Assembly (NCBI RefSeq): GCF_029846175.1
Contig: NZ_JARWAC010000001.1
Coordinates: forward strand, 1-64,000
Origin: Sphaerisporangium sp. TRM90804
GTDB taxonomy: Bacteria > Actinomycetota > Actinomycetes > Streptosporangiales > Streptosporangiaceae
Direction: 5' to 3'
DNA length: 64,000 bases
A program made the position numbers and the translations under genes. Of the stretch, positions 1 through 21,979 are shown piece after piece (the first letter of the stretch is position 1; every line of letters begins with the position of its first letter). The notes under the pieces are model-generated. The model worked only from the letters and a program-made list of their open reading frames with translations, made no database searches and was not told the DNA's origin.

Positions 1-3000
1 GGCCGGGTGGACTCCCAGGTGAAGATCCGCGGGTTCCGGGTCGAACCCGGCGAGGTCGAAGCGGTGCTCGCCGCCCACCCGCAGGTCGAGCACGCCCTGG
101 TCATCGCCCGGGAGGACACCCCCGGCGACAAACGCCTCGTCGCCTACATCGTCCCCGACGACCAGCCCGCCGAAGGCGCCGCCGGCGAGCAGGTCGAGGA
201 GTGGCGCCAGATCTTCGACGCCGAGTACACGACCGCGCCGGCCGCCGAGTTCGGGCAGGACTTCACCGGCTGGAACAGCAGCTACGACGGCGCCCCCATC
301 CCGCTGCCCGAGATGGCGCGCTGGCGCGACGCCGTCGTGGAGCGTGTCGCCGAGCTGCGACCGCGCCGCGTCCTGGAGATCGGCGTCGGCACCGGCCTGC
401 TGCTGTCGCGCCTGGCCCCGGACGCCGAGGAGTACTGGGGAACCGACCTGTCGGAACAGGTCGTGCGAGCCCTGGCCGCCCACGTGGAGGCACGCCCCGC
501 GCTGGCGGGAAAGGTGGTGCTGCGCGCACAGGCCGCCGACGACTTCTCCGGCGTCCCGGAGGGCTACTTCGACGCCGTCGTGCTGAACTCCGTGGTGCAG
601 TACTTCCCCGGCGCCGACTACCTGGTCGGCGTGCTCCAAGGCGCCATGAGGGCGCTCGCGCCCGGCGGCGCGGTGGTGGTCGGCGACGTGCGCGACCGGC
701 GCCTGCTCCGCGCCTTCCGCGCCGCCGTCGAACTGACCGGGGAGGGCGCGGCGCCGGAGGCCGACGGCGCGCGCGTCCGCACGGCCGTCGACCAGGCGGT
801 GGCCCTGGAGAAGGAGCTGGTGGTCGACCCCGCCTTCTTCCCCGCCCTGCGGCAGGCCCTGCCCGACCTCGCCGGGGTGGACGTCCGGCTCAAGCGCGGC
901 GGCTACCACAACGAGCTCACCCGGCACCGCTTCGAGGCCGTGCTGCACAAGACCGGCCGGGCGGTGCTGGACGTCGCGGACGCGCCCCGCCTCGCCTTCG
1001 GCGCGGACCTGGCCGACCTCGACGCCGTGGCCGCCCACCTGCACGACCACGCCCCCGCGACCCTGCGGCTCACCGGCCTGCCCAACGCCCGGGTGGCGCA
1101 CGAGGTCGCCGCGTCCGCCGCCCTGGATCGCGGCTCCCCGCTGCCGGAGGTGCTGCGCGCCCTGCGCGCCCCGCACGGCGTGGATCCGGAGGACTGCCAC
1201 CTGCTGGGCGAGCGGCTGGGATACCGGGTCGCGGTGACCTGGTCGGCCTCGGCGCTCGACCGCTTCGACGCGGTCTTCGCGCGCGTGGACGACCCCCGGG
1301 TGGCCCTGGTGGGCACCGCCTCCGTCGGCGGTCCCGAGCCCGGCGCCCCGCGACGGCACGTCAGCGACCCGCTCGCCTCCCGCGACCGGGGGCTGCTGGC
1401 CCGGCGGGTGCGCGCGCTGGCCGAGTCCCGGCTGCCCGAGTACATGGTGCCGGCGGCGGTGATGGTGCTGGACGCGCTGCCGCTCACCGGCAACGGGAAG
1501 ATCGACCGCGCCGCCCTGCCCGCGCCCCGCTGGGACGGCGGCGCCGGGCGGGGGCCCCGCTCGCCGCGCGAGCAGATGCTGTGCGAGCTGTTCGCCGAGG
1601 TGCTCGGCGTTCAGCGGGTCGGCATCGACGACGACTTCTTCGACCTCGGCGGCCACTCGCTGCTCGCCACCCGTCTGGCCGCCCGGGCCCGGCGCCTGCT
1701 CGGCGTCGAGGTGCCGATCCGGGCGCTGTTCGAGGCGCCCACCGTCGCGGAGCTGGCGCAGCGGCTGGAGGCCTCCGCGCGGCCCCCGCTCCTGCCGCGC
1801 CCCAGGCCGGAGCGGGTGCCGCTGTCGTTCGCGCAGCGACGGCTGTGGTTCCTGCACCGGCTGGAGGGCCCGAGCGCCACGTACAACATGCCATGGGTCA
1901 TCCGCATGCGGGGTGATCTCGACGTCGGCGCGCTGCGGGCGGCGGTGGCGGACCTGGTGGCCCGGCACGAGTCCCTGCGCACGGTGTTCCCCGACGTCGA
2001 CGGCGAGCCGTACCAGCTCGTGCTCGACCCCCGCCGCGCCGTGCCCGAGCTGGAGGTCACCGACCTGCCCGGGGCGGACGGGGAGGAGCTGCGCGCCGCG
2101 CTCGACGCCGCCGCGCGCCACGGCTTCGACCTGCGGCGCGAGATCCCGATCCAGGCTCGCCTGTTCCGGATGGGCGACGGCGAGTACGCGCTGCTGCTGC
2201 TGTTCCACCACATCGCCGGGGACGGCTGGTCGTTCTCGCCGCTGGCTCGCGACCTGATGACCTCCTACGAGGCGCGCCGCCGGGGCGAGGAGGCCGTGCT
2301 GCCCGCCCTGCCGGTGCAGTACGCCGACTACACGCTGTGGCAGCACGAGCTGCTCGGCGACGGGGACGACCCGTCGAGCGTCCTCGGCCGGCAGCTCGAC
2401 TACTGGCGGCGCGAGCTGGCCGACCTGCCGCCGGAGATCCGGCTGCCCGCCGACCGGCCGCGCCCGGCGCGGGTCACCCACGAGGGCGAGGTGCTGGAGT
2501 TCGACGTCGACGCCGGCCTGCACGCCGGACTGGCCAGGCTGGCGACGGAGTCCGGTTCCAGCGTGTTCATGGTGCTGCAGGCGGGCTTGGCGGCGTTGCT
2601 GACCCGGCTCGGCGCCGGCACCGACATCCCCATCGGCAGCGGCATCGCCGGCCGCACCGACCAGGCGCTGGATGACCTGGTGGGGTTCTTCGTCAACACC
2701 CTGGTGCTGCGCACCGACACCTCCGGCAACCCCGCCTTCCGGCGGCTGCTGGAGCGGGTGCGTGAGACCTCGCTGACCGCGTACGCCAACCAGGACATCC
2801 CGTTCGAGCTTCTGGTGGAGGTGCTCAACCCGGCCCGCTCCATGGCCCGCAGCCCGCTGTACCAGGTGTCGCTGGTCCTGCAGAACACCCCGGAGGTGCG
2901 CTTCGGCCTGCCGGGGCTGGAGCTGGAATACGTCCAGGCCGGCATCGGCACCGCCCGCGACGACATCTTCATGAGCCTCAGCGAGCGCCGTGACGACGAC

Positions 3001-6000
3001 GGCGGCCCGGCCGGGTTCTTCGGCTTCGTGGAGTACAACACCGACATCTTCGACCGGGACACCATCCAGGGAGTCGTCGACCGCTACCGGCGCTTCCTCA
3101 CGGCCGTCGTCGCCGACCCCGGCCTGCCGATCGAACAGGTGGACATCCTCGCCCCGGGCGAGCGTCGCGAGCTGGTCTCGCTCGGCGCCGGGCCGCGCTC
3201 GCAGCCCCCGCGGACGACCGTGCACGGGCTGTTCGAAGAGTGGGCCGCCCGGACGCCGGACGCGGCGGCGGTGCGGGACGGCGCCGCCACGCTGTCGTAC
3301 GCGGAGCTGAACGCCCGCGCCAACCGGCTCGCGCGCCACCTGATCGCCAACGGTGTCGGCCCCGAGCGGGCCGTCGCCTTGGCGGTGCCGCGCTCGGCCG
3401 ACTACGTGGTCGCCGCCCTGGCCGTGCTCAAGGCGGGCGGGGTCTGCCTCCCCCTCGACTCCGGCCTGCCGGTGAACCGGGTCGCGGCGATCTTCGCCGA
3501 GGCCGCCCCGGTGTTCGTGCTGCGGCACGTCGAGCTGGGCGCCGAGGTCCCGGCCGCGCCCGCCCTCCCGTCGTTCCTGCTGGACGACCCGTTCGGTCAC
3601 CACACGCTGAGCCGTCACGCGCCGGCCGACCCGGCCGACGCCGACCGCGCGGCGCCGCTGTCTCCCGAGCACCCGGCGTTCGTGATCTACACCTCCGGGT
3701 CCACGGGCCGGCCCAAGGGCGTGGTCCTGTCCCACCGGGCGCTGGTCAACGTCGCGGCCGACCAGGGCGCCCGGTTCGGCGCCGGGCCGGGCGCCCGGGT
3801 GCTGCAGGTGGTGTCCACCTCCTTCGACATGGCGGTGGGCGACCTGCTGCTGAGCCTGCTCAGCGGCGCGACGCTGGTGCTGCCCGAGAGCCGGGGCCAG
3901 GTGCTGGGCGAGGAGCTGGCCGCCGTGATCGACGCCGCCGGGGTCACCCACATGATCGCCCCGCCCGCCGTGCTCGCCACGCTGCCACCCCTGGAGACAT
4001 CCTCGCCGGCCTGCGTCGTGACGGCGGGAGAGGCCTGCTCCCCGGAGCTGGTCGCCCGGCTCGCGCGGGGACGCACGGTGTTCAACGCCTACGGCCCCAC
4101 CGAGACCACGATCGTGGCGACCACCAGCCGCCCGCTCGACGGGTCGGGCGCCACGCCCATCGGCTCGGCCGTCCACAACGTGGACGTGCGGGTGCTGGAC
4201 GGCGGCCTCAACCCGGTGCCGCGCGGCGTCGCCGGGGAGCTGTACGTCGCCGGGCGCGGAGTGGCCCGGGGCTACCTGGGCCAGCCCGCGATGACGGCCG
4301 CGCGCTTCGTCGCCGACCTGGGCGGCCCGCCCGGCTCACGCATGTACCGCACCGGCGACCTGGTCCGGTGGAACGCCGCGGGAGAGCTGGAGTACCTCGG
4401 CCGCGCCGACGACCAGGTCAAGGTCCGCGGCTTCCGCATCGAACCCGGCGAGGTCGAGGCGGTGCTCGTCCGGCACGGCGGGGTGGCGGGCGCGGCGGTC
4501 GTCGTCCGCGAGGACCGGCCGGGCGATCAGCGGCTGGTGGCCTACGTCGTCCCGGCCGACGAGGGCGGCGAGGCGCTGGCGGAGCTGGCCGCCGAGCAGG
4601 TCGGCGAGTGGCGGCAGATCTTCGACGCCGGCTACGAGTCGCAGGGCGGCGCCGGGTTCGGCGAGGACTTCTCCGGCTGGAACAGCAGCTACGACGAGGG
4701 CGTCCCGCTGCCGCCCGGCGAGATGCGCGAGTGGCGCGACGCCGCGGTCGACCGCGTCCGCGAGCTGGCTCCCGCCAGGGTCGCCGAGCTCGGGGTCGGG
4801 TCGGGCCTGCTGCTGTCGCGGCTGGCCCCCGGCTGCCAGGCCTACTGGGGCACCGACTTCTCGGCGGAGGCGATCCACCACCTGGGGCGTGAGGTCGCCG
4901 CCCGGCCCGAGCTCGCCGGCCGGGTCGTGCTGCGCGCCCAGCCCGCCGACGACCTGACCGGGCTGCCCACCGAGTACTTCGACGTCGTGGTGCTGAACTC
5001 CGTCGCCCAGTACTTCCCCAGCGGGCAGTACCTGCTCACCGTCCTGCGCCAGGCGTTCGGCCTGCTCAGGCCCGGCGGCGCGGTGTTCGTGGGCGACGTG
5101 CGCCACCGCCGTTCGCTGCGGGCCCTGCTGTCGGCGGTGCACGCCGGCCGGGTGCGCGGCGAGGGCGACGCCGACCGGGTACGCCGGGCCGTCGAGCAGG
5201 CCGTGGTGCTGGAGAAGGAGCTGCTGGTCGACCCGGAGTTCTTCACGGCGTTGCGCGGCGTCATACCCGGCCTGGCCGCCGTGGACGTGCGCCTCAAGCG
5301 GGGCGCCGGGCAGAACGAGCTGACCCGGCACCGCTACGAGGTGATGCTGCACAAGGGCCCGCGCGAGGTGGTCGACGTGGCCGCGGCGCCGCGGCTGGCG
5401 TACGGGCACGACGTGGCGGGCCTGGACGACCTCGCCGGCGTCCTGGGCGCGCGCCGCGGCGGGCCGCTGCGGGTGACCGGGGTGCCCAACGCGCGGCTGA
5501 CGGCGGAGGCCGCGGCGGCCAGGGCGCTCGACGAGGGCATGCCGTGGCGGGACGTCCGGGCCGAGCTGGACCGGCGCGACGGCGTCGACCCCGAGAAGCT
5601 GCACGCGCTGGGGGAGCGGCTCGGCTACCGCGTCGCGATCTCCTGGAGCCCTGACGCGGTCGACGCCGTCGAGGCGGTGTTCGTCCCCCGCGCCCCCCGG
5701 CCGCAGGACGACCTCCCCGCCACCGGCGACGCCGGCACCGGACGGCCGCTCACCCATGAGCCCGGCGCCGACCGGCCGCTCACCCGGGAGCCCGGCGCCG
5801 GCCGGCCGCGCACCGAAGAGCCGGGCACCGGGCCGCTCACCGGTGACGCCGGCCCCCCGCCGCCGCTCACCGGCGTGTACCGACCGGCGGGGGAACCCGG
5901 CGATCCCCTGCGCCGCACCAACAGCCCCGCCGGCAGCCGCCAGCACAGCGCGCTCCTGGGCCGGCTCCGGTCCTACCTGAAGGAGCACCTGCCCGAATAC

Positions 6001-7176
6001 ATGGTGCCCTCGGCGGTCGTCCCCCTGCAGAGCCTCCCGCTCACCCCCCGGGGCAAGCTCGACCGCCGGGCGCTGCCCGCTCCCGACACCGCCTCGGTGA
6101 CCGGCCGGGGCCCGACGACCCTCAACGAGGAGATCCTGTGCGACCTGTTCGCCGAGGCGCTCGGCCTGGAGCGGGTGGGCGTCGACGACGACTTCTTCGC
6201 CCTGGGCGGGCACTCGCTGCTCGCCGCCCGGCTGGTCAGCCGGATCCGGGCGACGCTCGGCGCCGACGTGGCCATCCGCTCGCTGTTCGAGGCGCCGACG
6301 GTCGCCGGGCTCGCCGCCCGGCTGGGCATGGACGACGACGGATCCTCCCTGGACGTCCTGCTGCCGCTGCGCCCGCACGGCGACCGGCCCCCGCTGTTCT
6401 GCGTGCACGCCGGGTGGGGCATCAGCTGGTCGTACTCCGGCCTCATCCGCCACCTGGGAGCCGACCGGCCGATCTACGCGCTGCAGGCGCGGAGCCTCGC
6501 CCGTCCCGAGCCGCGGCCGGACAGCATCGAGGAGATGGCCGCCGACTACGTCGCCCAGATCCGCTCGGTGCGGCCGGAAGGCCCCTACCACCTGCTCGGC
6601 TGGTCGTCCGGCGGCCCGGTGGCGTTCGAGATGGCCGTCCAGCTTCAGCGGGCGGGCGAGCGGGTGGGCCTGCTGACGATCCTGGACGCCTACCCGCCCA
6701 CGGCGCTGCCCGCCCTGGAGGAGGGCCTGCGCGGCGAGGCCGGCGATCTGCTGCGGCGCGCCTTCAGCAAGGAAGGCATGCTCATGGCGCTCATCGAGGC
6801 GATGGGATTCGGGCAACGGCACCTGATGGACGGCCCGCCCGACTTCGCGCGCGTCGCCGAGCTGTTCCGGTCCGAGGGCAGCGCGCTGGCCGGCCTCACC
6901 GAGGACGACGTGGTCGCCATGGTCGAGGTGTACGCCAACACCAGCGCCATCACCGACAAGTACGTGCCGGGTGTGTTCCACGGCGACCTGCTGTTCTTCA
7001 TGGCGACCAAGGACCGCGTCGAGGGGACCCCGCCGCCCGGCTCGTGGCGTCCCTTCGTCGACGGCGACATCGAGGTGCACGACGTCGAGTGCGCGCACCA
7101 CCGGATGACCTGGCCCCAGCACATCGCCGAGATCGGCCGCGTGGTGAGCGCCCGGCTCGCCGAGCCCGGCACATGA
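1..7176 (+). CDS. Nonribosomal peptide synthetase, C-terminal modules with TE (5' partial)
   Basis: This is the end of a multimodular NRPS. At base 1 the frame is already in the A8 motif of an adenylation domain, so the true start lies outside the window. Domain order: the end of an A domain carrying an inserted N-methyltransferase (about 190-960; SAM motif EIGVGTG, then NELTRHRFE); A10 NGKID (1492); carrier domain (GGHS, Ser codon 1657); condensation domain (1810-3160; HHIAGDG at 2206-2226); a second A domain ([11 protein letters not shown] near 3690) with a second N-MT (4590-5360); a carrier (Ser codon 6214); a thioesterase (GWSSG, Ser codon 6604). The last two residues of the product should therefore be N-methylated and the chain released by the TE. 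Aligned by eye to PheA, the second A pocket reads roughly D-M-G-I-V-A-A-I-V-K, which I cannot assign. Whether the TE hydrolyses, cyclises or dimerises is not readable. Confidence 0.97.
5730..5865 (+). repeat. Degenerate 30-bp in-frame repeats in NRPS linker
   Basis: Between the second N-methyltransferase insert and the A10 motif the NRPS has an extra low-complexity stretch. It is built from about four degenerate 10-residue units of the type RPLTxEPGAx ([30 protein letters not shown], then a shortened PLTGDAG). The equivalent place in the preceding module (about 1300-1370) is short and has no such repeat, so this looks like a local in-frame expansion in a flexible linker. Confidence 0.7.
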
Positions 7177-7551: not shown

Positions 7552-8742
7552 ATGACATCGCACGACGAGACGACCGGCGTCACGGCGGACCGCTCGCTGG
7601 TGGACAGCTCCGACCCGGCCCCGTGGTTCGAGCTCATGCGGCGGCGGCACCCGGTCTGGCGCGACGACCAGTTCGGCATGTGGCACGTCTTCCGTCACGC
7701 GGACGTGGAGGCGGCGCTGTCGGACCCGGCGACGTTCTCCTCCGACTCCCGGGCGGAGATGGCGGCGATGCCGGCGTTCCGGCCGTTCACCCGCGGCAAC
7801 TTCATGGTGATGGACCCGCCCGGCCACCGCAGGCTGCGCGGCCTGGTGGCCACGGCCTTCGGCAGGCGGGCCATGGAGCAGCTCGAACCCCTGGTCACGA
7901 CGATCGTGGACGACCTGCTGGACGATGCCAAGGGCGCCGGGGAACTGGAGCTGGTGACGGAGCTTGCGCACCCCATGCCGGTGTTCGTGCTCGCCGACCT
8001 GCTCGGGCTGCCGCGATCGGACCGCCCCCTGCTGTTCACCTGGGCCAAGGTGCTCACCGGCGTCGACGTGAGCGCGGCGGCGGAGCCCGCGGACCCGGCC
8101 TCCTCGCTGGGGGAGATGAACACCTACCTGCTGGACCACATCACCCGGCGCAGGCGGTCGCCCGGGCCCGACCTGGTGAGCCGCCTGGTCCAGGCCGAGG
8201 TGGACGGGGACCGGCTGGCCGACGAGGAGCTCGTCGGCATCGTGAGCCTGCTGCTGATCGCCGGCCACCTCATGGCGACGATGCTCGTGGCCAACTCGGT
8301 GCTGTGCCTGGACGGGCACCCCGAGCAGGCCGCGGCCGTCCGGGCCGACCCCGGCGCGCTGCCCGGGGCGATCGAGGAGGTGCTGCGCTACCGGAACTCG
8401 GCCGACCGGCTGGTGCGCACCACCACCCGGGAGGTCGAGGTCGCCGGGCGGGCGATCCCGGCCGGGGCCAGGGTCCTGCTGTGGACGGGGTCGGCCAACC
8501 GCGACCCGTCGGCCTTCCCCGATCCCGAGCGGTTCGACGTCACGCGCTCGCCCAACCGGCACCTCGGCTTCGGCCACGGCGTCCACTTCTGCCTCGGCGC
8601 GCCGCTCGGCCGGCTGGAGGCCAGGGTGGCGCTCGGCCGGCTGCTGGCGCGGACCGGCTCCGTGCGGGTCCTGCCGGGCGTCGAGTACTTCGGGTCGCAC
8701 TCGTTGATCAGGAAGTTGCCGATCAAGGTGCGGTGGGCGTGA
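7552..8742 (+). CDS. Cytochrome P450 (first of four in the cluster), atypical I-helix
   Basis: A bacterial soluble P450 of 396 residues, expected to oxidise the peptide or a precursor with external ferredoxin and reductase. The heme-binding loop FGHGVHFCLGAP and the ExxR helix (EEVLRYR) are intact. The I-helix is unusual: the segment normally written AGxxTT reads AGHLMATM, so both the usual acidic residue and the threonine of the oxygen-activation pair are replaced. Altered I-helices occur in P450s that couple phenols or act on carrier-bound substrates, so it may not be a simple hydroxylase; this is inference. A good ribosome binding site (aggaggtg) precedes the ATG. Confidence 0.95.
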   Translation: MTSHDETTGVTADRSLVDSSDPAPWFELMRRRHPVWRDDQFGMWHVFRHADVEAALSDPATFSSDSRAEMAAMPAFRPFTRGNFMVMDPPGHRRLRGLVATAFGRRAMEQLEPLVTTIVDDLLDDAKGAGELELVTELAHPMPVFVLADLLGLPRSDRPLLFTWAKVLTGVDVSAAAEPADPASSLGEMNTYLLDHITRRRRSPGPDLVSRLVQAEVDGDRLADEELVGIVSLLLIAGHLMATMLVANSVLCLDGHPEQAAAVRADPGALPGAIEEVLRYRNSADRLVRTTTREVEVAGRAIPAGARVLLWTGSANRDPSAFPDPERFDVTRSPNRHLGFGHGVHFCLGAPLGRLEARVALGRLLARTGSVRVLPGVEYFGSHSLIRKLPIKVRWA

Positions 8743-11410: not shown

Positions 11411-11432
11411 CCGCGACCACGGCAGGAGGGGC

Positions 11433-12677
11433 ATGATGCGCATCGACTTCGGCGAACCGAAACCGCTCGACTCCCTGGACGGGCTGCGCCTGCACGACCC
11501 CGCCGCGTACGTGGAGCGGTGCCGCCACGACGTGTGGCGGGCGCTGCGCCTGCACCGGCCCGTGGGGCGCGAGGAGATGCCCGACGGCACCCCCTACTGG
11601 TCCTTCGCCTCCTACGCCGACTGCGACAGGATCGTCAAGGACACCGAGACGTTCAGCTCCGAGGACGGCACCATCCTGGCGTCGGTCGGCGTGGGCGACT
11701 CCGCGGGCGGGCAGACCATCACGCTCATGGACCCGCCCGACCACGGGGCGATCCGCCGCCCGCTGATGCGGACGATGCGCCAGTCGGTGGTGCGGCGCCG
11801 TTCGGAGTCCGTGCGCGAGAAGGTGCTGCGGCTGATCGACCCGCTGGTCGGCGGCGGGGTGCACGACGTGGCGCGCCTGATGCGGCTGCTCCCCATGGTC
11901 GCCGTCGGCGAGCTGCTCGGCATCCCCGAACGGCACTGGGAGACGATCGCGTTCAACACCACCGCCAGCATCGCACCGGAGGACCCCGAGTACGCGGTCG
12001 GCCGGGACGTCGGCGACACCCTGCGCCGGGTGCACCACCGGCTGTTCGCCTGCTTCTCCGACTCCATCGAGGCGCGGCGCCGCGACCGCGGGGACGACGT
12101 GGTCTCCGCGCTGCTCGACCTGGAGGTCGCCGGCCGTCCCATCGACGACCGGCGGGTGATGCTGAACTGCTACAGCGTCGCCCTGGGGGCCAACTCCACG
12201 ACGCCGCACGTGGCCTGCCACACGCTGCTGGCCCTGGCGCTGCGGCCTGAGGTCTGGCGCACGGTGGTCGACGACCCCTCGGTCGTGCCGGCCCTGGTGG
12301 AGGAGGGCGCTCGCTGGACCTCGCCCACCCACCACCTGGTCAGGCGGGTGACCGCCGACACCGAGGTCGGCGGGGCCCGGATGGCGAAGGGCGACTGGGT
12401 GTGCGCCTGGGTGGCCTCCGCGAACCGGGACGAGCGGGTGTTCGACGACCCGTACACCTTCGACGTCCGGCGCTCGCCCAACCCGCACCTGAGCTTCGGC
12501 GCCGGAGCCCACTACTGCATCGGCGCCCCGTCCTCGCGGTTCGCCCTGTCGGTCCTCTTCGAGGAGCTGGCGCGGCGCCGTATGAGGTTCGAGGTGGCGG
12601 GGGAGATCCGGCACCTGCACTCCAACTGGATCAACGGGATCACCAGCCTTCCCATGCGCTTCGTCCGCGACGCCTGA
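11433..12677 (+). CDS. Cytochrome P450 (second), probable partner of the A-T didomain
   Basis: A 414-residue P450 with heme loop FGAGAHYCIGAP, ExxR helix EEGARW and I-helix LGANSTTPH, which keeps the paired threonines. It starts 22 bases after the A-T didomain with a strong ribosome site (ggagggg). It is clearly paralogous to the next gene: both share NCYS before the I-helix, the GANxTTP motif, and a C-terminal N-[WF]-I-N-G-[IM]-T-x-L-P segment. The simplest reading is oxidation, for example beta-hydroxylation, of the aminoacyl group held on the didomain; the substrate is not readable from sequence. Confidence 0.95.
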   Translation: MMRIDFGEPKPLDSLDGLRLHDPAAYVERCRHDVWRALRLHRPVGREEMPDGTPYWSFASYADCDRIVKDTETFSSEDGTILASVGVGDSAGGQTITLMDPPDHGAIRRPLMRTMRQSVVRRRSESVREKVLRLIDPLVGGGVHDVARLMRLLPMVAVGELLGIPERHWETIAFNTTASIAPEDPEYAVGRDVGDTLRRVHHRLFACFSDSIEARRRDRGDDVVSALLDLEVAGRPIDDRRVMLNCYSVALGANSTTPHVACHTLLALALRPEVWRTVVDDPSVVPALVEEGARWTSPTHHLVRRVTADTEVGGARMAKGDWVCAWVASANRDERVFDDPYTFDVRRSPNPHLSFGAGAHYCIGAPSSRFALSVLFEELARRRMRFEVAGEIRHLHSNWINGITSLPMRFVRDA

Positions 12678-12714
12678 CGGAGAGGCGCCCGAGCGACCTC
12701 CAGGAGACACGACC

Positions 12715-13983: not shown

Positions 13984-14035
13984 CAGCCCCGCCGCGACCC
14001 GAGGGGCCCCGCCGTCCACGATGGGAGCAGACCCG

Positions 14036-15241
14036 ATGCCGTTCCTGACCTTCGACAGCGCAGAGATACCGAGTGCCGAGGACGGTGGCGCCAAGCTGGC
14101 GTCCTGGCTGAAGGGCATGCGCGAGCGCGCCCCCGTCTGGGTCGACGAGCGCACCGGAGCCCACCACGTCTTCGGCTACGCCGAGTCCAAGGCGGTGCTG
14201 TACGACCACGCCCACTTCTCCTCCGACTGGAGCGAGTTCGCACCGCCCCAGGAGGACATGCCGGAGTACGTGAACCTCGGCACCGTGGACCCGCCCGCGC
14301 ACCGGCGGCTGCGCACCCTGGTGAACCAGGCGTTCCCGCAGAAGGAGATCGCCGCCCTGGAGCCCCGTGTACGCCAGATCGCCGAGGGGCTGCTCGACAC
14401 CGTCGCGGACCGGGAGGAGTTCGATCTCGTCGACACCCTGTCCAACCCGCTGCCCGCGCTGGTGGTGGCCGAGTTGCTGGGCGTCCCGTTCGAGGACCAG
14501 CCCATGTTCCGGCGGTGGATGGAGGACGCGTTCAACTCCTTCGACAACCCCATCGGCGACCTGTCGGACGTGCAGGTGGCCGACGTCGTCGTGGACAACC
14601 TGCGCGCCCTTCAGGAGTACATGCTCGACCAGGTGGCGCGCCGCCGCGCCCAGCCGCGCGACGACCTGATCAGCCGCCTGCTCGCGGCAGAGGTCGACGG
14701 GGACCGGCTGAGCGACATGGAGGCCTACGGCATGGCCTCCGCGATCCTCATGGGCGGGCAGATCAGCTCCACCGTGCTGCTCGGCACGGCCCTGTTCACC
14801 TTCGAGGAGGAGCCGGAGGCCGAGGCGGCGCTGCGCGCCGACCGCTCGCTCATCCCCCGCGCGGTGGAGGAGGTGCTGCGCTACCGGCCGCCGGTGATGC
14901 TGGCCCACCGGCTGGTCAAGCCGGGGGCCACCGTGGACGGCGCGCCTATCCCCCCTGGGATCGCGGTGGTGCCGTGGATCATGTCGGCCAACCGCGACCC
15001 CGCCCAGTTCACCTCCCCGGAGTCCTTCGACGTCCGGCGCACGCCCAACCCCCACCTGAGCTGGGGCCACGGCGTGCACTACTGCCTGGGCGCGCTGCTC
15101 GGCCGCATCGAGGCCAAGGTCGCGCTGGACCTGCTGTTCACCCGCTACTCGACGATCAAGTGCCTTGACCCCGTCTTCCACACCACACCAGGCGTGCTCG
15201 GGATCAAGGGAACGTCTCTCTCGGTTCACCACGCCGCCTAA
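14036..15241 (+). CDS. Cytochrome P450 (fourth), atypical I-helix
   Basis: A 401-residue P450 not closely resembling the two before it. The heme loop reads WGHGVHYCLGAL (Trp instead of the usual Phe), the ExxR helix is EEVLRYRPP, and the I-helix segment reads MGGQISSTV, so the standard acid-threonine pair is missing, as in the first P450. I chose the ATG at 14036 because gggagcag lies just upstream; an in-frame ATG at 14021 lacks a ribosome site. It is likely a tailoring oxygenase of the peptide. Confidence 0.94.
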   Translation: MPFLTFDSAEIPSAEDGGAKLASWLKGMRERAPVWVDERTGAHHVFGYAESKAVLYDHAHFSSDWSEFAPPQEDMPEYVNLGTVDPPAHRRLRTLVNQAFPQKEIAALEPRVRQIAEGLLDTVADREEFDLVDTLSNPLPALVVAELLGVPFEDQPMFRRWMEDAFNSFDNPIGDLSDVQVADVVVDNLRALQEYMLDQVARRRAQPRDDLISRLLAAEVDGDRLSDMEAYGMASAILMGGQISSTVLLGTALFTFEEEPEAEAALRADRSLIPRAVEEVLRYRPPVMLAHRLVKPGATVDGAPIPPGIAVVPWIMSANRDPAQFTSPESFDVRRTPNPHLSWGHGVHYCLGALLGRIEAKVALDLLFTRYSTIKCLDPVFHTTPGVLGIKGTSLSVHHAA

Positions 15242-15267: not shown

Positions 15268-16656
15268 TTGGCACACACAGACGCGAGCCGGGAGGCCCTC
15301 GATCCGCCGCGCGGCTCTCCCCCCTCCCGGGGGACGGCCGCGCCGGACCGGTGGACCGGCGACGTCCCGGAGATGACAGGGGACTTCCGGCGGGACTGGG
15401 CACGGGCGAGCGCCCACCTGCGCGCGGGCGCCGACCTGCCGGCGGGCCCGGCGGCCGGCCGCGCGGGCAGGCAGGCCGTCCACGAGTCCTGCCGGACGAC
15501 GCGCATGCGCTTCATGGCCGCGCACGCCGAGCGGGTGTACGACGAGCTCACCGACGGCCGGCGCGCCCACCCCCGGCTGGACGCCGTCGCCTACGCCGCC
15601 GCCGAGCTCTTCCCCGGGCTGACGCCCACCCGCGAGCAGATCGCGCGGGACCGGCGGGTGATGCAGGGCGAGAAGGACGGCTGGGAGCTCGACCAGGGCA
15701 TCCTGTTCTGGGGCCTGCTGTCCGCGCCGGACGCCGGGCGGCACCTGATGCGCGCCATGCTCCGCCCGACCCCCCAGGCCACCGGCATGGCGGCCGAGTT
15801 CGCCCGCAGCGGTAAGGCCGAGTTCGGCACGGTCACGCTGGAGCGCCGCGGCGGCGTCGGCCACGTCACCGTGCGCAACGAGCGGTTCCTCAACGCCGAG
15901 GACGACGCCGTGGTCGGCGACCTGGAGGCGGCGGTCGACCTCGCGCTGCTGGACGACGGCGTCGAGGTCGGCGTGCTGCGCGGCGCCACCATGTCCCACC
16001 CCCGCTACGCCGGCCGCAGGGTGTTCAACTCCGGCATCAACCTCACCCACCTCTACCAGGGGCGGATCTCCTTCCTGGACTTCCTGCTGCGCAGGGAGCT
16101 GGGCTACATCAACAAGATCGTCAGAGGGCTCGACCGCCCCGAGGAGCCGCGGGCGCAGTTCCCGCCGCGTCACGAGAAGCCCTGGATCGGCGCCGTCGAC
16201 ACCTTCGCCATCGGCGGGGGAACCCAGATCACCCTGGTGCTCGACTGGGTCGTGGCCACCAAGGACGCCTACTTCAGCCTGCCCGCCATGCGCGAGGGCA
16301 TCGTGCCCGGCGCCGCCGCGTTCCGGCTGCACCGCATGATCGGCAGCAGGCCCGCCCGGCAGGCGATCTTCGGCGACCGCCGGATCGACGCCGACGGCCC
16401 CGAAGGGCAGCTCCTGTGCGACCAGGTCGTCGCCGACTCCGAGATGGACGCGACGGTCGAGGCCGCGGCCGCCCGGCTGCGCGGCCCCGCGGCGGTCGTC
16501 AACCGGCGCATGATGCGGGTCGTCGAGGAGCCCCTCGACCTGTTCCGCGAGTACATGGCCTCATACGCGCTGGAGCAGTCGCGCCTGCTCTACAGCCGCG
16601 AGCTGATCGGCAACCTCGAGCGGATGTGGATCGGCAGGTCACGTAGGTCCGCATGA
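15268..16656 (+). CDS. DpgC-like cofactor-independent dioxygenase (crotonase fold)
   Basis: A 462-residue member of the DpgC group, enoyl-CoA-hydratase-fold enzymes that use O2 without metal or flavin. DpgC converts 3,5-dihydroxyphenylacetyl-CoA to 3,5-dihydroxyphenylglyoxylate in vancomycin-type dihydroxyphenylglycine synthesis. Seen: a helical N-terminal domain (to about residue 190), then GRRVFNSGINLTHLYQG, DTFAIGGGTQ, and LPAMREGIVPGAA with RLHRMIG, all characteristic of DpgC rather than ordinary crotonases. I prefer the TTG at 15268, with aggaagg 8 bases upstream, over the GTG at 15250. No DpgA, DpgB or DpgD homologue is in the window, so the substrate may be another arylacetyl-CoA; the missing genes could also lie upstream. 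Confidence 0.9.
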   Translation: MAHTDASREALDPPRGSPPSRGTAAPDRWTGDVPEMTGDFRRDWARASAHLRAGADLPAGPAAGRAGRQAVHESCRTTRMRFMAAHAERVYDELTDGRRAHPRLDAVAYAAAELFPGLTPTREQIARDRRVMQGEKDGWELDQGILFWGLLSAPDAGRHLMRAMLRPTPQATGMAAEFARSGKAEFGTVTLERRGGVGHVTVRNERFLNAEDDAVVGDLEAAVDLALLDDGVEVGVLRGATMSHPRYAGRRVFNSGINLTHLYQGRISFLDFLLRRELGYINKIVRGLDRPEEPRAQFPPRHEKPWIGAVDTFAIGGGTQITLVLDWVVATKDAYFSLPAMREGIVPGAAAFRLHRMIGSRPARQAIFGDRRIDADGPEGQLLCDQVVADSEMDATVEAAAARLRGPAAVVNRRMMRVVEEPLDLFREYMASYALEQSRLLYSRELIGNLERMWIGRSRRSA

Positions 16657-16703
16657 CATCGGCGCCGATCAAAGCCCACAACGACTCTCGCAGCGAGGTA
16701 GGC

Positions 16704-17876
16704 ATGGACACGCGACTGATAAGCCCGTCTGACGTCGAGCAGGTCGTCCGCGTGATAGGACGCCACGAACTCATGGACCGCGTCATCACCCGGCTGGCCC
16801 AGGGGCTGGCCGAGCTGGGCCGGGAGAAACGGGAGACCTCCCCCACGCGCGGCGGCTTCGACCGCGACTACCCGACGCCGGGGGTCCTCGAATGGATGCC
16901 GCACCACGTGCCGGGTGACAGCATCACCATCAAGACGGTGGCCTACAGCCCGGTGAACCCCCAGCGCTACGGCCTGCCGACCATCTTGAGCAACCTGGCC
17001 CGCTATGACTGCGCCACGGGCCGGCTGGTGGCGATGGCGGACGGGGTGGTCCTCACGGCTGTGCGCACCGGCGCCGCCTCGGCGGTGGCGTCACGGCTGC
17101 TCGCGCCGCCGGACAGCGCCGTGGTCGGAGTGATCGGCGCCGGCGCCCAGGCGGTGACGCAGGTGCACGCCCTGTCACGGGTGTTCCCGGTGGAACGCGT
17201 GCTGGTGTGGGACGTGGACCCGCGGCACGCGGCGAGCATGGCGGGCCGGACGGCCTTCCTCGGCCTGCCGACCGAGGTGGCGCGCCCGGAGGTGATCCTC
17301 GCCCGCGCCGACGTCATCAGCACGGTGACGTCGGTGGCCGTCGGCGGGGCGCCCGTGCTGCCCCACGGGGCCCACCGCCCCCATCTGCACGTCAACGCGG
17401 TCGGCTCCGACCTCGTGGGCAAGACCGAGCTGCCCAGGAGCCTCGTGCTGGAGGCGTTCGTCACCCCCGACCACCCCGAGCAGGCCCACCGCGAGGGGGA
17501 GTGCCAGCAGCTCGCCGGCGACCCCGCCCGGAACCGGGTCATCGGGCCCAGCCTGGGCGAGCTGTGCGCCGAGCCGGAGCTGGCGCTGGCCGTGCGCGAC
17601 CGGCTCACCGTCTTCGACTCCACGGGGTTCGCCCTGGAGGACCACCTCGCCCTGGACGTCCTGCTGGAGGCCGCCGACGAGGTGGGCGTGGGCTCCCGCG
17701 TCCAGGTGGAGTACCACCCCGTCGACACCCTCGACCCCTACTCGGCGCCGGTGCGCGGCCCGGGCCCGGCCGGACGCCCGCGCGTGCCCGCCGCCCGCGG
17801 CGTGCCGGTCGCCCGCGCGGCCGGGCGGCCGTCGCCGTCCGGGCGGGAGACGACGCCGTCCCCCGAGGAGCTGTGA
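16704..17876 (+). CDS. Ornithine cyclodeaminase / mu-crystallin family protein
   Basis: An NAD(P)-dependent enzyme of the ornithine cyclodeaminase family, about 390 residues. The Rossmann motif GVIGAGAQA and the family segment ADGVVLTAVRTGAAS are clear, and SITIKTVAYSP carries the expected active-site lysine region. Members make proline or pipecolate by cyclodeamination, reduce imino acids, or act like SbnB in diaminopropionate synthesis; I cannot choose. The ATG at 16704 has a good ribosome site (gaggtagg) and fits the family N-terminus. An in-frame ATG at 16653 overlaps the previous stop (ATGA). The last 40 or so residues are a Pro/Arg-rich tail not usual for the family. Its stop overlaps the next start (TGATG), suggesting coupled translation. 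Confidence 0.88.
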   Translation: MDTRLISPSDVEQVVRVIGRHELMDRVITRLAQGLAELGREKRETSPTRGGFDRDYPTPGVLEWMPHHVPGDSITIKTVAYSPVNPQRYGLPTILSNLARYDCATGRLVAMADGVVLTAVRTGAASAVASRLLAPPDSAVVGVIGAGAQAVTQVHALSRVFPVERVLVWDVDPRHAASMAGRTAFLGLPTEVARPEVILARADVISTVTSVAVGGAPVLPHGAHRPHLHVNAVGSDLVGKTELPRSLVLEAFVTPDHPEQAHREGECQQLAGDPARNRVIGPSLGELCAEPELALAVRDRLTVFDSTGFALEDHLALDVLLEAADEVGVGSRVQVEYHPVDTLDPYSAPVRGPGPAGRPRVPAARGVPVARAAGRPSPSGRETTPSPEEL

Positions 17877-19012
17877 TGACCGCCGAGGCCACCATCGACG
17901 ACGTCGACCCGGTCGACTACGACGACCCCCGGGTCCACCGGGTGCTCGATCCCGCAGGCGGGCTCGCCCATCCCGGCCAGGCGCCGCCGCCCGCCGAGCG
18001 GTGCCTGGACCTGCACCGCCGCATGGTGCTGGGCCGCCGGTTCGACCGGCAGGCCACCGCCCTGGCCAAGCAGGGCAGGCTCACGGTCTACCCCTCCTCC
18101 TTCGGGCAGGAGGCGTGCCAGGTCGGCGCGGTCGCCGCGCTGCGCCCGTCCGACTGGCTCTTCCCGACCTACCGCGACTGCGTCGCGGTGCTGACCCGGG
18201 GCGTGGACCCGGTGGAGACCCTCACCCTCATGAGGGGCGACTGGCACTGCGGCTACGACCCGCGCGCGCACCGCGTCGCCCCCCAGGCGACCCCGCTGGC
18301 CACCCAGGCGGTGCACGCCGCGGGCCTGGCCCACGCCGCGCGCCTGCGCGGCGACGACACGGTGGCGCTCGCCCTGCTCGGCGACGGCGCCACCAGCGAG
18401 GGCGACTTCCACGAGGCGTGCAACTTCGCGGCGGTCTTCCGCTCGCCCGTGGTCTTCCTCGTCCAGAACAACCAGTACGCCATCAGCGTGCCGCTGTCAC
18501 GGCAGACCGCCGCCAAGAGGATCGCCGACCGGGGCGCCGGCTACGGGATGCCCGCCCGCGTGGTCGACGGCAACGACGTCCTCGCGGTGACCTCCGCGGT
18601 GTCCGACGCCGTCGAGTCGGCGCGGCGGGGGGAGGGGCCGTGGCTGGTCGAGGCCCTCACCTACCGCATGGGACCGCACACCAACACCGACGACCCCGGC
18701 AGGTACCGCGCCCCCGAGGAGGTGGAGCCCTGGCTCGGACGCGACCCGATCGCCCGGCTCCAGGCCCATCTGCGCGGACGCGGGATCCTCGACGACCCCC
18801 TCGCCGCGCGCGTGCGGGAGGAGGCCGAGCGGCTCGCCGCCGGCCTGCGGCGGAGCCTGGCCGAGGAGCCCGGCACCGAGCCGGCCGAGCCGTTCTCCCA
18901 CGTCTTCTCCGCCCCCACGCCCCGGCTGCGCCGCCAGGCCGCGGCGCTGGAGCAGGAGCTGTCCCGAGCCCGCACGCCCGCGCCGAACGGAGAGCCATGC
19001 CGACCGACGTGA
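17876..19012 (+). CDS. 2-oxoacid dehydrogenase E1 alpha subunit
   Basis: Thiamine-diphosphate-dependent E1 alpha subunit (378 residues) of a pyruvate or branched-chain type 2-oxoacid dehydrogenase, which decarboxylates a 2-oxo acid. The ThDP-binding motif is present (GDGATSEGDFHEA near residue 168, continuing to QNNQYAIS). The RMGPHTNTDDPGRYR segment is typical of branched-chain or broad E1 alphas. It overlaps the preceding stop by TGATG and the next gene by 16 bases, so the two dehydrogenase genes are co-translated. In this cluster it probably supplies an acyl-CoA building block. Pristinamycin PglB/PglC, which act in phenylglycine synthesis, are E1-type proteins in a comparable setting. Confidence 0.94.
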   Translation: MTAEATIDDVDPVDYDDPRVHRVLDPAGGLAHPGQAPPPAERCLDLHRRMVLGRRFDRQATALAKQGRLTVYPSSFGQEACQVGAVAALRPSDWLFPTYRDCVAVLTRGVDPVETLTLMRGDWHCGYDPRAHRVAPQATPLATQAVHAAGLAHAARLRGDDTVALALLGDGATSEGDFHEACNFAAVFRSPVVFLVQNNQYAISVPLSRQTAAKRIADRGAGYGMPARVVDGNDVLAVTSAVSDAVESARRGEGPWLVEALTYRMGPHTNTDDPGRYRAPEEVEPWLGRDPIARLQAHLRGRGILDDPLAARVREEAERLAAGLRRSLAEEPGTEPAEPFSHVFSAPTPRLRRQAAALEQELSRARTPAPNGEPCRPT

Positions 19013-21051
19013 CGGTCGCCCGCGCGATCAACGCCGCCCTGCGTGACGCCATGGCCGAGGACGAGCGGGTGGTGGTCTTCGGCGAGGACGTGGGCCCGCT
19101 CGGCGGCGTGTTCCGCGTGACCGACGGCCTGGCCGCGGCGTTCGGCGACGAGCGGTGCTTCGACACCCCGCTGGCGGAGTCGGGCATCGTCGGCACCGCG
19201 ATCGGCATGGCCATGTACGGCTACCGCCCGGTGGTCGAGCTGCAGTTCGACGCGTTCGCCTACCCGGCGTTCGAGCAGATCGTCAGCCATGTCGCCAAGT
19301 GGCGCTCCAGGACCCGCGGCCGGATGGGCCTCCCGCTGGTGATCAGGATCCCGTTCGGCGGCGGCATCGGGGCCGTCGAGCACCACAGCGACTCCTCAGA
19401 GGCCTACTACGCCCACACCCCGGGCCTGCAGATCGCCGTGCCCTCGTGCGCGGCCGACGCGTACTCCCTGCTGCGCGCGGCGATCGCCTCCGAGGACCCC
19501 GTCGTGTTCCTGGAGCACAAGAAGCTGTACTGGTCCGAGCACGGCCAGATCACGCCGCAGCCGTCGCCGTTCGGCCGTGCGGCGGTCCGCCGCCGGGGCA
19601 CCACCGCGACGATCGTCGCCTACGGGGCCGTGGTCGGCACCGCGCTCGCCGCGGCGCGGGAGGCGGCGGCCCGGGGCTGGGACGTCGAGGTGATCGACCT
19701 GCGCACCCTGGTGCCGCTGGACGAGGAGACCGTGGTCGAGAGCGCGCGCCGCACCGGACGCGTGCTCGTCGTCCACGAGGCGCAGGGCTTCTGCGGGGTC
19801 GGCGCCGAACTGGCGGCGCTGGTCGCCGAACGCTGCTTCGGGCGGCTCAAGGCCCCCGTGCGCCGGGTCACCGGGTTCGACGTCCCCTATCCCCCTCCCC
19901 GGCTGGAGCGCTTCCACCTGCCCACGGTCGAGCGCCTCGTCACGGCGCTCGCGGAGCTGCACGGCGAGTGGGACGCCGGCGTCCCCGCCCTCCCGCCGCC
20001 CGGCCCGGCGGAGGCCGCCGGTGAGCCGTTCCTGCTGCCGGACCTGGGCGAGGGCCTGGTGGAGGCCGAGATCGTCCGCTGGCTGGTCAGCGAGGGCCAG
20101 TTCGTGGAGGTGGACGCCCCGCTGGTGGAGGTCGAGACCGCCAAGAGCGTCGTGGAGCTGCCCAGCCCCCACCGGGGCCTGGTGTCCCGCCTCCACGGCG
20201 GGGTCGGGGACTCCGTCGCGGTCGGCGCGCCGCTGGTGACCCTGCTACCCGACGGCACCGCCACCGCCACCCTCCCGTCCGGCGGCACCGCCACCCGGCC
20301 GTCCGGCCCCTCCCTCGTGGCCGTCGAGGCCGCTCCGGCCGTGGCGGCCGCCCCGCCGGCGAGCGGGCGCCGCACGCCCCTGTACGGGCCGCGCGGCGCG
20401 GTGGTCAGGAAGGTCGAGACCAGTCGCCGGGAGATCCCCCACGTGACGGTGTGGGTCGACGCCGACGCCACCGGCCTGCTCGCGGCCCGCCGGCGCGCCG
20501 CCGCCGCCGCGAGGCCCGGGCTCCTCGGCCTGCTCGCCTGGTTCGCGCTGGACGGCCTGCGCCGCTTCCCGGTGCTGAACGGCCGGGTCGACCCCGAGCG
20601 CCAGGAGATCGTCGAGGCGGCGGAGGTGAATCTCGGCCTGGTCGTGCAGGGGGAGCGGGGCCTGGTGATCCCCGTGCTGCCGGCTGCGCAGGCGCTCGGC
20701 CCGGACGCGCTGGTCGCCGGGGTGCGCCGGGTCGTCGAGTCCGCCCGCACCGGGGGCGGCGGCTACCGGGTGAGCGGCGGCACCTTCACCGTCAACAACT
20801 TCGGCGGGTTCGGGGTGGACGGCTCCACCCCGATCATCAACCACCCGGAGGTCGCCATGCTGGGGATGGGACGTCTCACGGACCGTCCCTGGGTTGTCGA
20901 CGGCGGCGTGCGCCCCCGGGCCGTCACCCAGCTCTCCCTCACCTTCGACCACCGGGTGTGCGACGGAGACGTCGCCGGCGGGTTCCTGCGCCACGTCGCC
21001 GACCTCGTGGAGCGCGGCGCGCTGCCGTCGGACGACGCGCCCGGCGCGTGA
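18997..21051 (+). CDS. Fused 2-oxoacid dehydrogenase E1 beta - E2 acyltransferase
   Basis: One uninterrupted 684-residue frame joins two subunits that are normally separate. Residues 1-330 or so are E1 beta (VVFGEDVG, DTPLAESGIVG, RIPFGGGIGAVEHHS, VIDLRTLVPLD). After a short Pro-rich linker comes one lipoyl domain (LPDLGEGLVEAEIVRW from about 343, with lysine in EVETAKS near 382). An Ala/Pro/Thr-rich linker follows, then the E2 catalytic domain ending in TFDHRVCDGD (His near 651). I see no peripheral-subunit-binding domain between lipoyl and catalytic parts, so binding of E3 may differ from standard complexes; covalent fusion would replace E1 binding. ATG 18997 is preceded by ggag. It is the last gene of the cluster before the ribosomal region. 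Confidence 0.93.
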   Translation: MPTDVTVARAINAALRDAMAEDERVVVFGEDVGPLGGVFRVTDGLAAAFGDERCFDTPLAESGIVGTAIGMAMYGYRPVVELQFDAFAYPAFEQIVSHVAKWRSRTRGRMGLPLVIRIPFGGGIGAVEHHSDSSEAYYAHTPGLQIAVPSCAADAYSLLRAAIASEDPVVFLEHKKLYWSEHGQITPQPSPFGRAAVRRRGTTATIVAYGAVVGTALAAAREAAARGWDVEVIDLRTLVPLDEETVVESARRTGRVLVVHEAQGFCGVGAELAALVAERCFGRLKAPVRRVTGFDVPYPPPRLERFHLPTVERLVTALAELHGEWDAGVPALPPPGPAEAAGEPFLLPDLGEGLVEAEIVRWLVSEGQFVEVDAPLVEVETAKSVVELPSPHRGLVSRLHGGVGDSVAVGAPLVTLLPDGTATATLPSGGTATRPSGPSLVAVEAAPAVAAAPPASGRRTPLYGPRGAVVRKVETSRREIPHVTVWVDADATGLLAARRRAAAAARPGLLGLLAWFALDGLRRFPVLNGRVDPERQEIVEAAEVNLGLVVQGERGLVIPVLPAAQALGPDALVAGVRRVVESARTGGGGYRVSGGTFTVNNFGGFGVDGSTPIINHPEVAMLGMGRLTDRPWVVDGGVRPRAVTQLSLTFDHRVCDGDVAGGFLRHVADLVERGALPSDDAPGA

Positions 21052-21604: not shown

Positions 21605-21979
21605 GTGCCCACTATTCAGCAGTTGGTCCGAAAGGGCCGACAGGACAAGGTCACCAAGACCAAGACTCCGGCGCTAAAAGGTAGTCCCCAGCTCCGCGGC
21701 AACTGCGTGCGTGTTTACACCACGACCCCGAAGAAGCCGAACTCGGCGCTGCGCAAGGTGGCCCGTGTCCGGCTGAGCAGCGGCATCGAGGTCACCGCCT
21801 ACATCCCCGGTGTGGGCCACAACCTTCAGGAGCACTCGATCGTGCTCGTTCGCGGCGGTCGTGTTAAGGACCTGCCGGGCGTTCGCTACAAGATCGTGCG
21901 CGGTGCGCTCGACACCCAGGGTGTCCGCAACCGCAAGCAGGCCCGCAGCCGTTACGGCGCGAAGAAGGAGAAGAGCTGA
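21605..21979 (+). CDS. rpsL: 30S ribosomal protein S12
   Basis: S12, a decoding-centre protein of the small subunit, 124 residues ([11 protein letters not shown] at the start, [32 protein letters not shown]). Both lysine regions where streptomycin resistance arises (KKPNS and RVKDLPG) carry the sensitive-type residues. The GTG at 21605, preceded by ggag, gives the family length; the frame is open upstream but not related to S12. It heads the str operon from the promoter at 21298, and rpsG follows after one base. Confidence 0.99.

What the first reader, a model, noticed from the sequence alone, without database searches (positions are those of the whole stretch)
15268..21051. Possible new arylglycine route: 2-oxoacid dehydrogenase feeding a DpgC-like dioxygenase
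Seen: a DpgC-type cofactor-free dioxygenase, a cyclodeaminase-family gene, E1 alpha, and E1 beta-E2 follow one another with overlapping or near-overlapping ends, so they form one expression unit in the NRPS cluster. Known: DpgC turns an arylacetyl-CoA into an arylglyoxylate, normally after the type III PKS DpgA with DpgB/DpgD; in pristinamycin the E1-like PglB/PglC are proposed to make phenylacetyl-CoA for phenylglycine. Inference: here the two pathways may be joined, with the dehydrogenase turning an arylpyruvate into arylacetyl-CoA, the DpgC-like enzyme oxidising it, and a transaminase elsewhere giving the arylglycine. No dpgA, dpgB or dpgD is in the window. The alternative is that the dehydrogenase supplies a branched acyl-CoA and the dioxygenase acts in an ordinary Dpg pathway encoded upstream.
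Basis: partly seen in the sequence, partly recalled or inferred. Interest (0 to 1): 0.8.

Follow-up and report, generated by a model that had tools for sequence, protein, structure and literature searches.

The report
Phenylglycine genes beside an antibiotic's target
These genes most likely make the rare amino acid phenylglycine for a dityromycin-like antibiotic, by a route already known from another antibiotic, and the antibiotic gene cluster sits just in front of the gene for the ribosomal protein that such antibiotics bind.

Summary
Observation confirmed: one + strand operon holds a DpgC-like dioxygenase, a cyclodeaminase, E1 alpha and a fused E1 beta-lipoyl-E2 at the end of an NRPS cluster.

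The core inference (dehydrogenase makes arylacetyl-CoA, DpgC-like enzyme makes arylglyoxylate, giving an arylglycine) is well supported; the arylglycine is most likely L-phenylglycine (Phg). The route is not new: streptogramin B loci found here carry Phg-NRPS, DpgC-like, E1a, E1b, TE, aminotransferase, the published pglA-E order, so PglA appears to be DpgC-like itself.

The Dpg alternative fails: type III PKS-linked DpgCs form a separate supported clade, and no type III PKS was found in the sequenced cluster pieces. The own genome has a Phg-type NRPS module. The cyclodeaminase resembles those of streptogramin genomes (PipA-like). No PglE-like aminotransferase was found; the last step is open.

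New: the product is probably of the dityromycin/GE82832 class and the cluster lies between rpoC and rpsL. rpsL encodes S12, that class's target, here with Asn at the drug-contacting Val32 position. The cluster splits rpoC-rpsL in 2 of 11 genus genomes; both have N32, but so do 3 without the cluster. Function and product are inferred from sequence.

The parts
7..7176 (+). NRPS, cut by the contig start: end of an N-methylating module, C-A-MT-T, terminal TE
   Evidence: Pfam domains; codes; orthologue in S. melleum 77%
7552..8742 (+). cytochrome P450 (a)
   Evidence: PF00067
8795..9538 (+). type II thioesterase
   Evidence: PF00975 148 bits
9581..11410 (+). stand-alone A-T didomain, code DAFFIGAVFK (Ile-like by recalled codes)
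   Evidence: PF00501, PF00550; code
11433..12677 (+). cytochrome P450 (b)
   Evidence: PF00067
12715..13983 (+). cytochrome P450 (c)
   Evidence: PF00067
14021..15241 (+). cytochrome P450 (d)
   Evidence: PF00067
15250..16656 (+). PglA/DpgC-like cofactor-free dioxygenase, proposed phenylacetyl-CoA dioxygenase
   Evidence: NF042432 509.5 bits; outside the type III PKS-linked clade; residues
16653..17876 (+). OCD-family cyclodeaminase, PipA-like
   Evidence: PF02423; 59-61% to OCDs of 5 streptogramin-type genomes
17876..19012 (+). 2-oxoacid dehydrogenase E1 alpha
   Evidence: PF00676 262 bits
18997..21051 (+). fused E1 beta-lipoyl-E2 catalytic domain, no E3-binding domain detected
   Evidence: Pfam; same fusion in S. 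melleum
21605..21979 (+). rpsL, ribosomal protein S12 with L29/N32/V34; probable antibiotic target and self-resistance allele

Best explanation
The operon supplies L-phenylglycine to an NRPS making a bicyclic depsipeptide of the dityromycin/GE82832 class. E1 alpha and E1 beta-E2, with an E3 from elsewhere, turn phenylpyruvate into phenylacetyl-CoA; the PglA-type DpgC-like dioxygenase turns that into phenylglyoxylate; an aminotransferase encoded elsewhere makes Phg, which NRPS module 3 loads. The cyclodeaminase is PipA-like and supplies pipecolate or proline for another module. The cluster lies between rpoC and rpsL, and the neighbouring S12 carries a substitution at a dityromycin-contacting residue that would protect the producer. 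Shown by sequence: genes, order, synteny, clade, A-domain codes, position, S12 residue. Inferred: substrates, product, protection.
For: Type III PKS-linked DpgCs form one clade (28 of 28 such rows, 99/95); window and S. melleum lie outside it. In G336 the DpgC copy nearer the type III PKS falls inside that clade, the copy beside E1a-E1b-E2 with the streptogramin copies. Streptogramin B loci have Phg-NRPS-TE, DpgC-like, E1a, E1b, TE, aminotransferase, the published pgl order (passages). Own contig C49 has module code DIYLLGLLTK against DIFLWGLLGK/DIYLWGLLGK of streptogramin Phg modules; its best hits after its orthologue are Phg domains. The NRPS starts A-MT-T with the Thr code and no C domain and ends C-A-MT-T-TE, fitting N,N-dimethyl-Thr and the N-methyl-dehydro-Tyr ester of dityromycin (passages). 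The cluster lies between rpoC and rpsL; S12 has N32 where V32T gives dityromycin resistance.
Against: No enzyme was assayed. No PglE-like aminotransferase in the cluster pieces and only 34-35% homologues in G000 and G081. The E1 alpha tree does not place the window with the streptogramin E1s, and E1 alpha is about as close to E1s of branched-chain class in genomes generally (58-66%). The DpgC tree does not join the window to the streptogramin copies (open fork 89/58). 3 of 5 N32 genomes lack the cluster. The own cluster is in four contigs with gaps. PMC11761653 assigns the same enzyme types in a proposed dityromycin cluster to isoleucine modification.
Confidence: 0.75

Rival explanations
1. 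Ordinary Dpg pathway: the dioxygenase acts on 3,5-dihydroxyphenylacetyl-CoA made by a DpgA/B/D set elsewhere.
For: DpgC family score is high; one type III PKS exists in the genome, on contig C25.
Against: No type III PKS in the cluster pieces; the C25 gene has no DpgC in the 20 kb examined around it; the window DpgC lies outside the type III PKS-linked clade and lacks its residues at 347, 438, 439. DpgB and DpgD were not searched for separately.
Confidence: 0.03
2. The dehydrogenase supplies a branched acyl-CoA, and the dioxygenase gets its arylacetyl-CoA elsewhere.
For: E1 alpha is of the branched-chain class, 58-66% to copies in other actinobacteria.
Against: The first module has no C domain to take an acyl starter; the E1s of the streptogramin pgl-type loci are of the same class; in 12 of 80 genome handles searched (79 genomes, one entered twice) E1 alpha lies within 10 kb of DpgC.
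Confidence: 0.07
3. The OCD-family enzyme is not a cyclodeaminase here but aminates phenylglyoxylate reductively, replacing PglE.
For: It lies between DpgC and E1; no PglE-like enzyme in the cluster pieces; the family includes amino acid dehydrogenases such as TIGR02371 and BhcD.
Against: Its close relatives (59-61%) are in 5 streptogramin-type genomes, where Phg and pipecolate modules occur together, and the pgl-type loci there that were annotated have an aminotransferase; 6 of 6 other DpgC-E1 genomes have no such OCD at 1e-20.
Confidence: 0.12
4. The arylglycine is not Phg but a ring-hydroxylated one made from 4-hydroxyphenylpyruvate.
For: The module 3 code DIYLLGLLTK also resembles the recalled Hpg code DIFHLGLLCK.
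Against: Leu, not His, at code position 278, as in the streptogramin Phg modules; nearest A domains after the orthologue are Phg domains; dityromycin is reported to contain Phg.
Confidence: 0.08
5. The place in front of rpsL and the S12 substitution are coincidence.
For: 3 of 5 N32 genomes lack the cluster; the flank tree does not resolve one N32 clade; T32 occurs in 7 of 72 Streptomyces.
Against: N32 is the very position of the producer's V32T change; PMC6763770 reports Val32 in all 30 diverse bacteria compared. Both cluster carriers have N32, and the NRPS modules fit an S12-binding class.
Confidence: 0.15

Closest known systems
pglA-E (lpg) phenylglycine operon of Streptomyces pristinaespiralis (pristinamycin I)
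   Same: DpgC-like (by synteny here), E1 alpha, E1 beta, downstream of an NRPS with a Phg module; proposed phenylpyruvate, phenylacetyl-CoA, phenylglyoxylate, Phg route
   Different: Window has an E2 fused to E1 beta and an OCD gene between DpgC and E1, no adjacent TE and no PglE-like aminotransferase
DpgA-B-C-D pathway (3,5-dihydroxyphenylglycine)
   Same: Homologous DpgC; recalled active-site residues kept
   Different: No type III PKS in the cluster pieces; different DpgC clade and residues 347, 438, 439
dityromycin/GE82832 and the cluster proposed for S. kasugaensis (PMC11761653, figure legend)
   Same: P450s, 2-oxoacid dehydrogenase and enoyl-CoA hydratase-type gene, methyltransferase; residues match the modules read here
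   Different: There the dehydrogenase and hydratase are assigned to isoleucine modification; I did not see that sequence
S12 self-resistance of Streptomyces AM-2504
   Same: Substitution at S12 position 32
   Different: V32N instead of V32T; R55 kept; cluster beside rpsL
berninamycin cluster
   Same: Antibiotic cluster adjoining rpsL-rpsG-fusA-tuf (PMC9290621, passages)
   Different: A thiopeptide said to target the 50S subunit, not S12

Membership tests
pgl phenylglycine pathway | PglA/DpgC-like dioxygenase | tested here: met
   NF042432 509.5 bits; streptogramin copy 498.4, S. melleum 517.1
pgl phenylglycine pathway | E1 alpha and E1 beta next to it | tested here: met
pgl phenylglycine pathway | Phg-specific A domain in the NRPS | tested here: met
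   code and nearest domains in the own contig C49; activity not tested
pgl phenylglycine pathway | PglE-type aminotransferase | tested here: not met
   none in the cluster pieces; only 34-35% homologues in G000 and G081; gaps remain
pgl phenylglycine pathway | PglD-type thioesterase | tested here: inconclusive
   two PF00975 proteins in the cluster, neither adjacent
pgl phenylglycine pathway | phenylpyruvate and phenylacetyl-CoA as substrates | not testable with these tools
   needs enzyme assays
DpgA-B-C-D pathway | type III PKS DpgA in the cluster | tested here: not met
DpgA-B-C-D pathway | DpgC in the type III PKS-linked clade | tested here: not met
DpgC equivalog NF042432 | score above the curated 530 bits | tested here: not met
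   509.5 bits
dityromycin/GE82832 class | N-methylating Thr starter module, N-methyl-Val-like, Phg, terminal N-methyl-Tyr-like with TE | tested here: met
   Phg and part of the order read in S. melleum and short own contigs
dityromycin/GE82832 class | full ten-residue assembly line | tested here: inconclusive
   seven modules and one stand-alone A-T seen in S. melleum; gap between contigs
dityromycin/GE82832 class | product binds S12 | not testable with these tools
   only the S12 residue was read
lysine cyclodeaminase (PipA-like) | close kinship to OCDs of streptogramin genomes | tested here: met
   59-61% in 5 genomes; activity not tested

The most novel reading that the evidence does not exclude
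An S12-binding Phg peptide cluster has settled between rpoC and rpsL so that biosynthesis and the altered target are inherited together. It uses a streamlined Pgl pathway in which a two-gene 2-oxoacid dehydrogenase with fused E1 beta-E2 passes phenylacetyl-CoA to a PglA-type dioxygenase, and the OCD-family enzyme or an unrelated aminotransferase finishes phenylglycine without PglE.
Probability: 0.3. Interest if true: 0.75.

Novelty: new variant of a known kind. Interest (0 to 1): 0.58.

Why it matters
In the papers I could search, the one proposed dityromycin cluster attributes these two enzyme types to isoleucine modification; this locus suggests a testable reassignment to phenylglycine. It indicates that PglA-type dioxygenases stand apart from type III PKS-linked DpgC, with residues that may help tell Phg from Dpg clusters. 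And it puts an antibiotic cluster directly in front of the gene of its probable target, with a substitution at a drug-contacting residue, so that one can ask how clusters and resistant targets come to travel together.

Tried and rejected
Ordinary Dpg pathway: rejected. Branched acyl-CoA starter: weakened, not excluded. OCD as Phg dehydrogenase: kept as a rival only, because its close kin are in streptogramin-type genomes. E1 alpha phylogeny as a test of Pgl membership: unresolved. Flank tree to see whether N32 is one clade: weak support at the key forks (36-77), no conclusion. Identity with the published S. cinnabarinum ATCC 31213 genome: rejected, that one is 4.39 Mb at 74.7% G+C against 8.3 Mb here. 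My first A-domain reader misplaced positions 299 and 301; corrected codes are. My first type III PKS query was a wrong-frame ORF; redone. A TEII-AT-P450-P450 cassette in G570 was followed as a possible dityromycin cluster, but it ends at a contig edge and that genome has no DpgC-like hit at 1e-60.
Full report
What is there. The window is the first 64 kb of contig C2 of an 8.3 Mb genome in 86 contigs. The genus is Sphaerisporangium by inference: the same-genus genome G081 has the DpgC locus on a 210,521-base contig at the same place as S. melleum JCM 13064. From 7 to 21051 on the + strand lie NRPS, P450, type II TE, stand-alone A-T, three P450s, DpgC-like, cyclodeaminase (OCD), E1 alpha and a fused E1 beta-lipoyl-E2. 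Directly downstream come rpsL at 21605, fusA and tuf. The four genes of the finding overlap by 1 to 16 bases (and the ORF ends).

The missing upstream part. rpoC lies on contig C4 and is followed there by a SIS-domain protein, an SDR, a TE, a PhyH-type dioxygenase and an O-methyltransferase on the - strand, then by the start of an NRPS on the + strand that runs off the contig. S. melleum shows the same order. Two short own contigs, C49 and C50, carry NRPS modules matching S. melleum ones at 77% and 75-80%. So the cluster lies between rpoC and rpsL. In the genus, 9 of 11 genomes have the end of rpoC just upstream of rpsL; in the other two, G000 and G081, E1b-E2 is there instead. DpgC-like hits at E <= 1e-60 occur in those same 2 of 11, and in 41 of 297 genomes of the family sample.

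The known route. Of 392 Streptomyces genomes, 65 have a DpgC-like hit at 1e-60. I searched E1 alpha in 80 of the 111 genome handles I had listed; one genome is in the 80 twice (G235 and G307). 79 of 80 have some E1 alpha at 1e-60, so only its place is informative. In at least 12 of the 80 it lies within 10 kb of DpgC: G000, G081, G304, G305, G336, G375, G415, G440, G471, G484, G642, and G301 at 8.5 kb centre to centre; the match list was cut. In G440 the NRPS codes read in order DFWNVGMVHK, DTYWWGGTFK, DVQLAAHVMK, DAWAIAAVCK with MT, DFQLLGVAVK, DIFLWGLLGK, then TE. From recalled codes and structure this is the order of a streptogramin B (Thr, aminobutyrate, Pro, N-methylated Phe type, pipecolate, Phg). 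After it come a DpgC-like gene (NF042432 498 bits, also under the 530 cut-off), E1a, E1b, a thioesterase and a class I aminotransferase. That is the published order snbDE-pglA-B-C-D-E, where PglB/C is suggested to convert phenylpyruvate to phenylacetyl-CoA and PglA, called a Phg dioxygenase in the text and a dehydrogenase in a table, oxidises it (PMC7089894, passages; PMC10685826, passages). That PglA is DpgC-like is my inference from synteny; G440 is unnamed and I saw no published PglA sequence. Library searches linking DpgC with PglA or pyruvate dehydrogenase gave nothing; L-phenylglycine with DpgC listed one paper, on glycopeptides, which I did not open.

Which kind of DpgC. DpgC copies were labelled by what lies within 9 kb. 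Of the 66 loci, three (L121, L123, L125) gave no row at my score cut; of 82 rows three repeats were dropped, leaving 79. All 28 rows with a type III PKS and no E1 fall into one clade (99/95), with one of the two G336 copies and one unlabelled row, L117, at a contig start. Window and S. melleum form a pair (100/99) outside it. The 11 E1-linked rows fall in three places and are not one clade, and the fork that would order the window among them is open, so its class is defined by exclusion. In G336, with two tandem copies, the copy nearer the type III PKS falls in the type III PKS clade and the copy beside E1a-E1b-E2 with the streptogramin ones. At window position 439 type III PKS-linked rows have F in 28 of 28, E1-linked Y in 11 of 11; at 347 A or V in 28 of 28 against M or L in 11 of 11; at 438 E in 27 of 28 against 0 of 11. 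Y439 is also in 32 of 32 distant rows with neither neighbour, so Y is probably ancestral; some unlabelled actinobacterial rows have D or E at 438. E217, G323 and Q326 are kept in all 79 rows and R282 in 77, positions that I recall as active-site residues of the solved enzyme. Whether 347, 438 or 439 touch the substrate was not tested. By plain identity the window is not clearly closer to E1-linked copies other than S. melleum (50-60%) than to type III PKS-linked ones (46-57%).

Phenylglycine as residue. Own contig C49 and S. melleum carry a module with code DIYLLGLLTK; streptogramin-type loci have DIFLWGLLGK or DIYLWGLLGK at the terminal module. Among the 13 A domains compared, the best hits besides the orthologue (78%) are Phg domains at 59-61%, then the aminobutyrate-type one at 54-55%. 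In S. melleum it is module 3.

Cyclodeaminase and last step. In 30 genomes searched, OCDs of 59-61% occur in 5 streptogramin-type genomes (G235, G415, G440, G471, G484), 12 kb to 174 kb from DpgC or on another contig; S. melleum has 76%; 6 of 6 other DpgC-E1 genomes (G301, G304, G305, G336, G375, G642) have no hit at 1e-20. It is best read as PipA-like. The S. melleum module 4 A domain is slightly closer to the Pip than to the Pro domain (51% against 48%), with the unclear code DVQVFAQLVK. A PglE query over 20 genomes found 55-58% homologues in G031, G304, G336 and G375, but only 34-35% in G000 and G081, and nothing in the cluster pieces. The amination step is unassigned.

The dehydrogenase. 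E1 beta and E2 are one ORF in the window and S. melleum and separate in the 8 other loci with E2 that I examined. No E3-binding domain is detected in either fusion; the one separate E2 scanned (L194) has one. G000 and G081 show no other E1 alpha above 42% identity at 1e-60. The E1 alpha tree is unresolved.

Product and target. N,N-dimethyl-Thr, N-methyl-Val, an O-aryl-N-methyl-dehydro-Tyr with C-terminal ester, an oxidised residue and Phg are reported for dityromycin/GE82832 (passages; PMC6763770 instead speaks of an N,N-dimethyl valine). GE82832 and MBJ-0086/0087 come from this genus (passages). The assembly line starts A-MT-T with the Thr code and no C domain and ends C-A-MT-T-TE. Seven modules and the stand-alone A-T are seen in S. 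melleum; dityromycin is a decadepsipeptide, so two may lie in the gap. Dityromycin contacts S12 residues 30, 32, 55, 76 and 78, and V32T or R55K gave resistance in that study (PMC6763770, results and discussion). The window S12 has N32, with L29 and V34; R30, R55 and H76 are kept; 78 is Ile as in the other genus members. 5 of 11 genus genomes have N32, 6 of 11 V32. Three N32 genomes lack the cluster, so N32 can precede or outlive it. PMC11761653 (passages) proposes a dityromycin cluster in S. kasugaensis and assigns its 2-oxoacid dehydrogenase and enoyl-CoA hydratase to isoleucine modification; my reading would make these Phg genes. A cluster beside rpsL-rpsG-fusA-tuf has a precedent in berninamycin (PMC9290621, passages). 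The papers that searches listed did not, in what I saw of them, report this cluster; most were seen as listing only.

Limits. All functional statements are inferred from sequence; the own cluster is in four contigs.

Noticed in passing
window 21605-21979: S12 with L29/N32/V34; three genus genomes (G129, G172, G191) share it without the DpgC cluster and with rpoC just upstream.
   Followed up: partly
window 18997-21051: E1 beta-lipoyl-E2 fusion without a detected E3-binding domain, seen in both Sphaerisporangium loci and not in 8 other loci.
   Followed up: partly
L193 (G336), about 9117-15000: Tandem DpgC paralogues, one of the type III PKS-linked clade and one beside E1a-E1b-E2: a cluster that may make both Dpg and Phg.
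   Followed up: partly
L070, L077, L079, L082-L084 and others, 32 tree rows: A DpgC-like clade, largely from soil and water metagenome bins, without type III PKS or close E1 near it and with R or K (31 of 32) at window position 347; function unknown.
   Followed up: no
L215 (G570), 1535-6725: TEII-AT-P450-P450 cassette, 57/57/64/73% to the window, at a contig end in a Streptomyces without a DpgC-like hit at 1e-60: perhaps a separate module for an oxidised residue.
   Followed up: partly
G031:C1:6130364-6131683: A PglE-like aminotransferase (57%) in a genus member without the cluster.
   Followed up: no
L188, 8877-9980: A SIS-domain protein (PF10432) next to rpoC at the cluster's outer edge, also in S. 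melleum; role unclear.
   Followed up: no
L146 (G311, S. griseoviridis), 8720-11073: E1a-E1b pair beside an NRPS and a P450 with no DpgC found near it.
   Followed up: no
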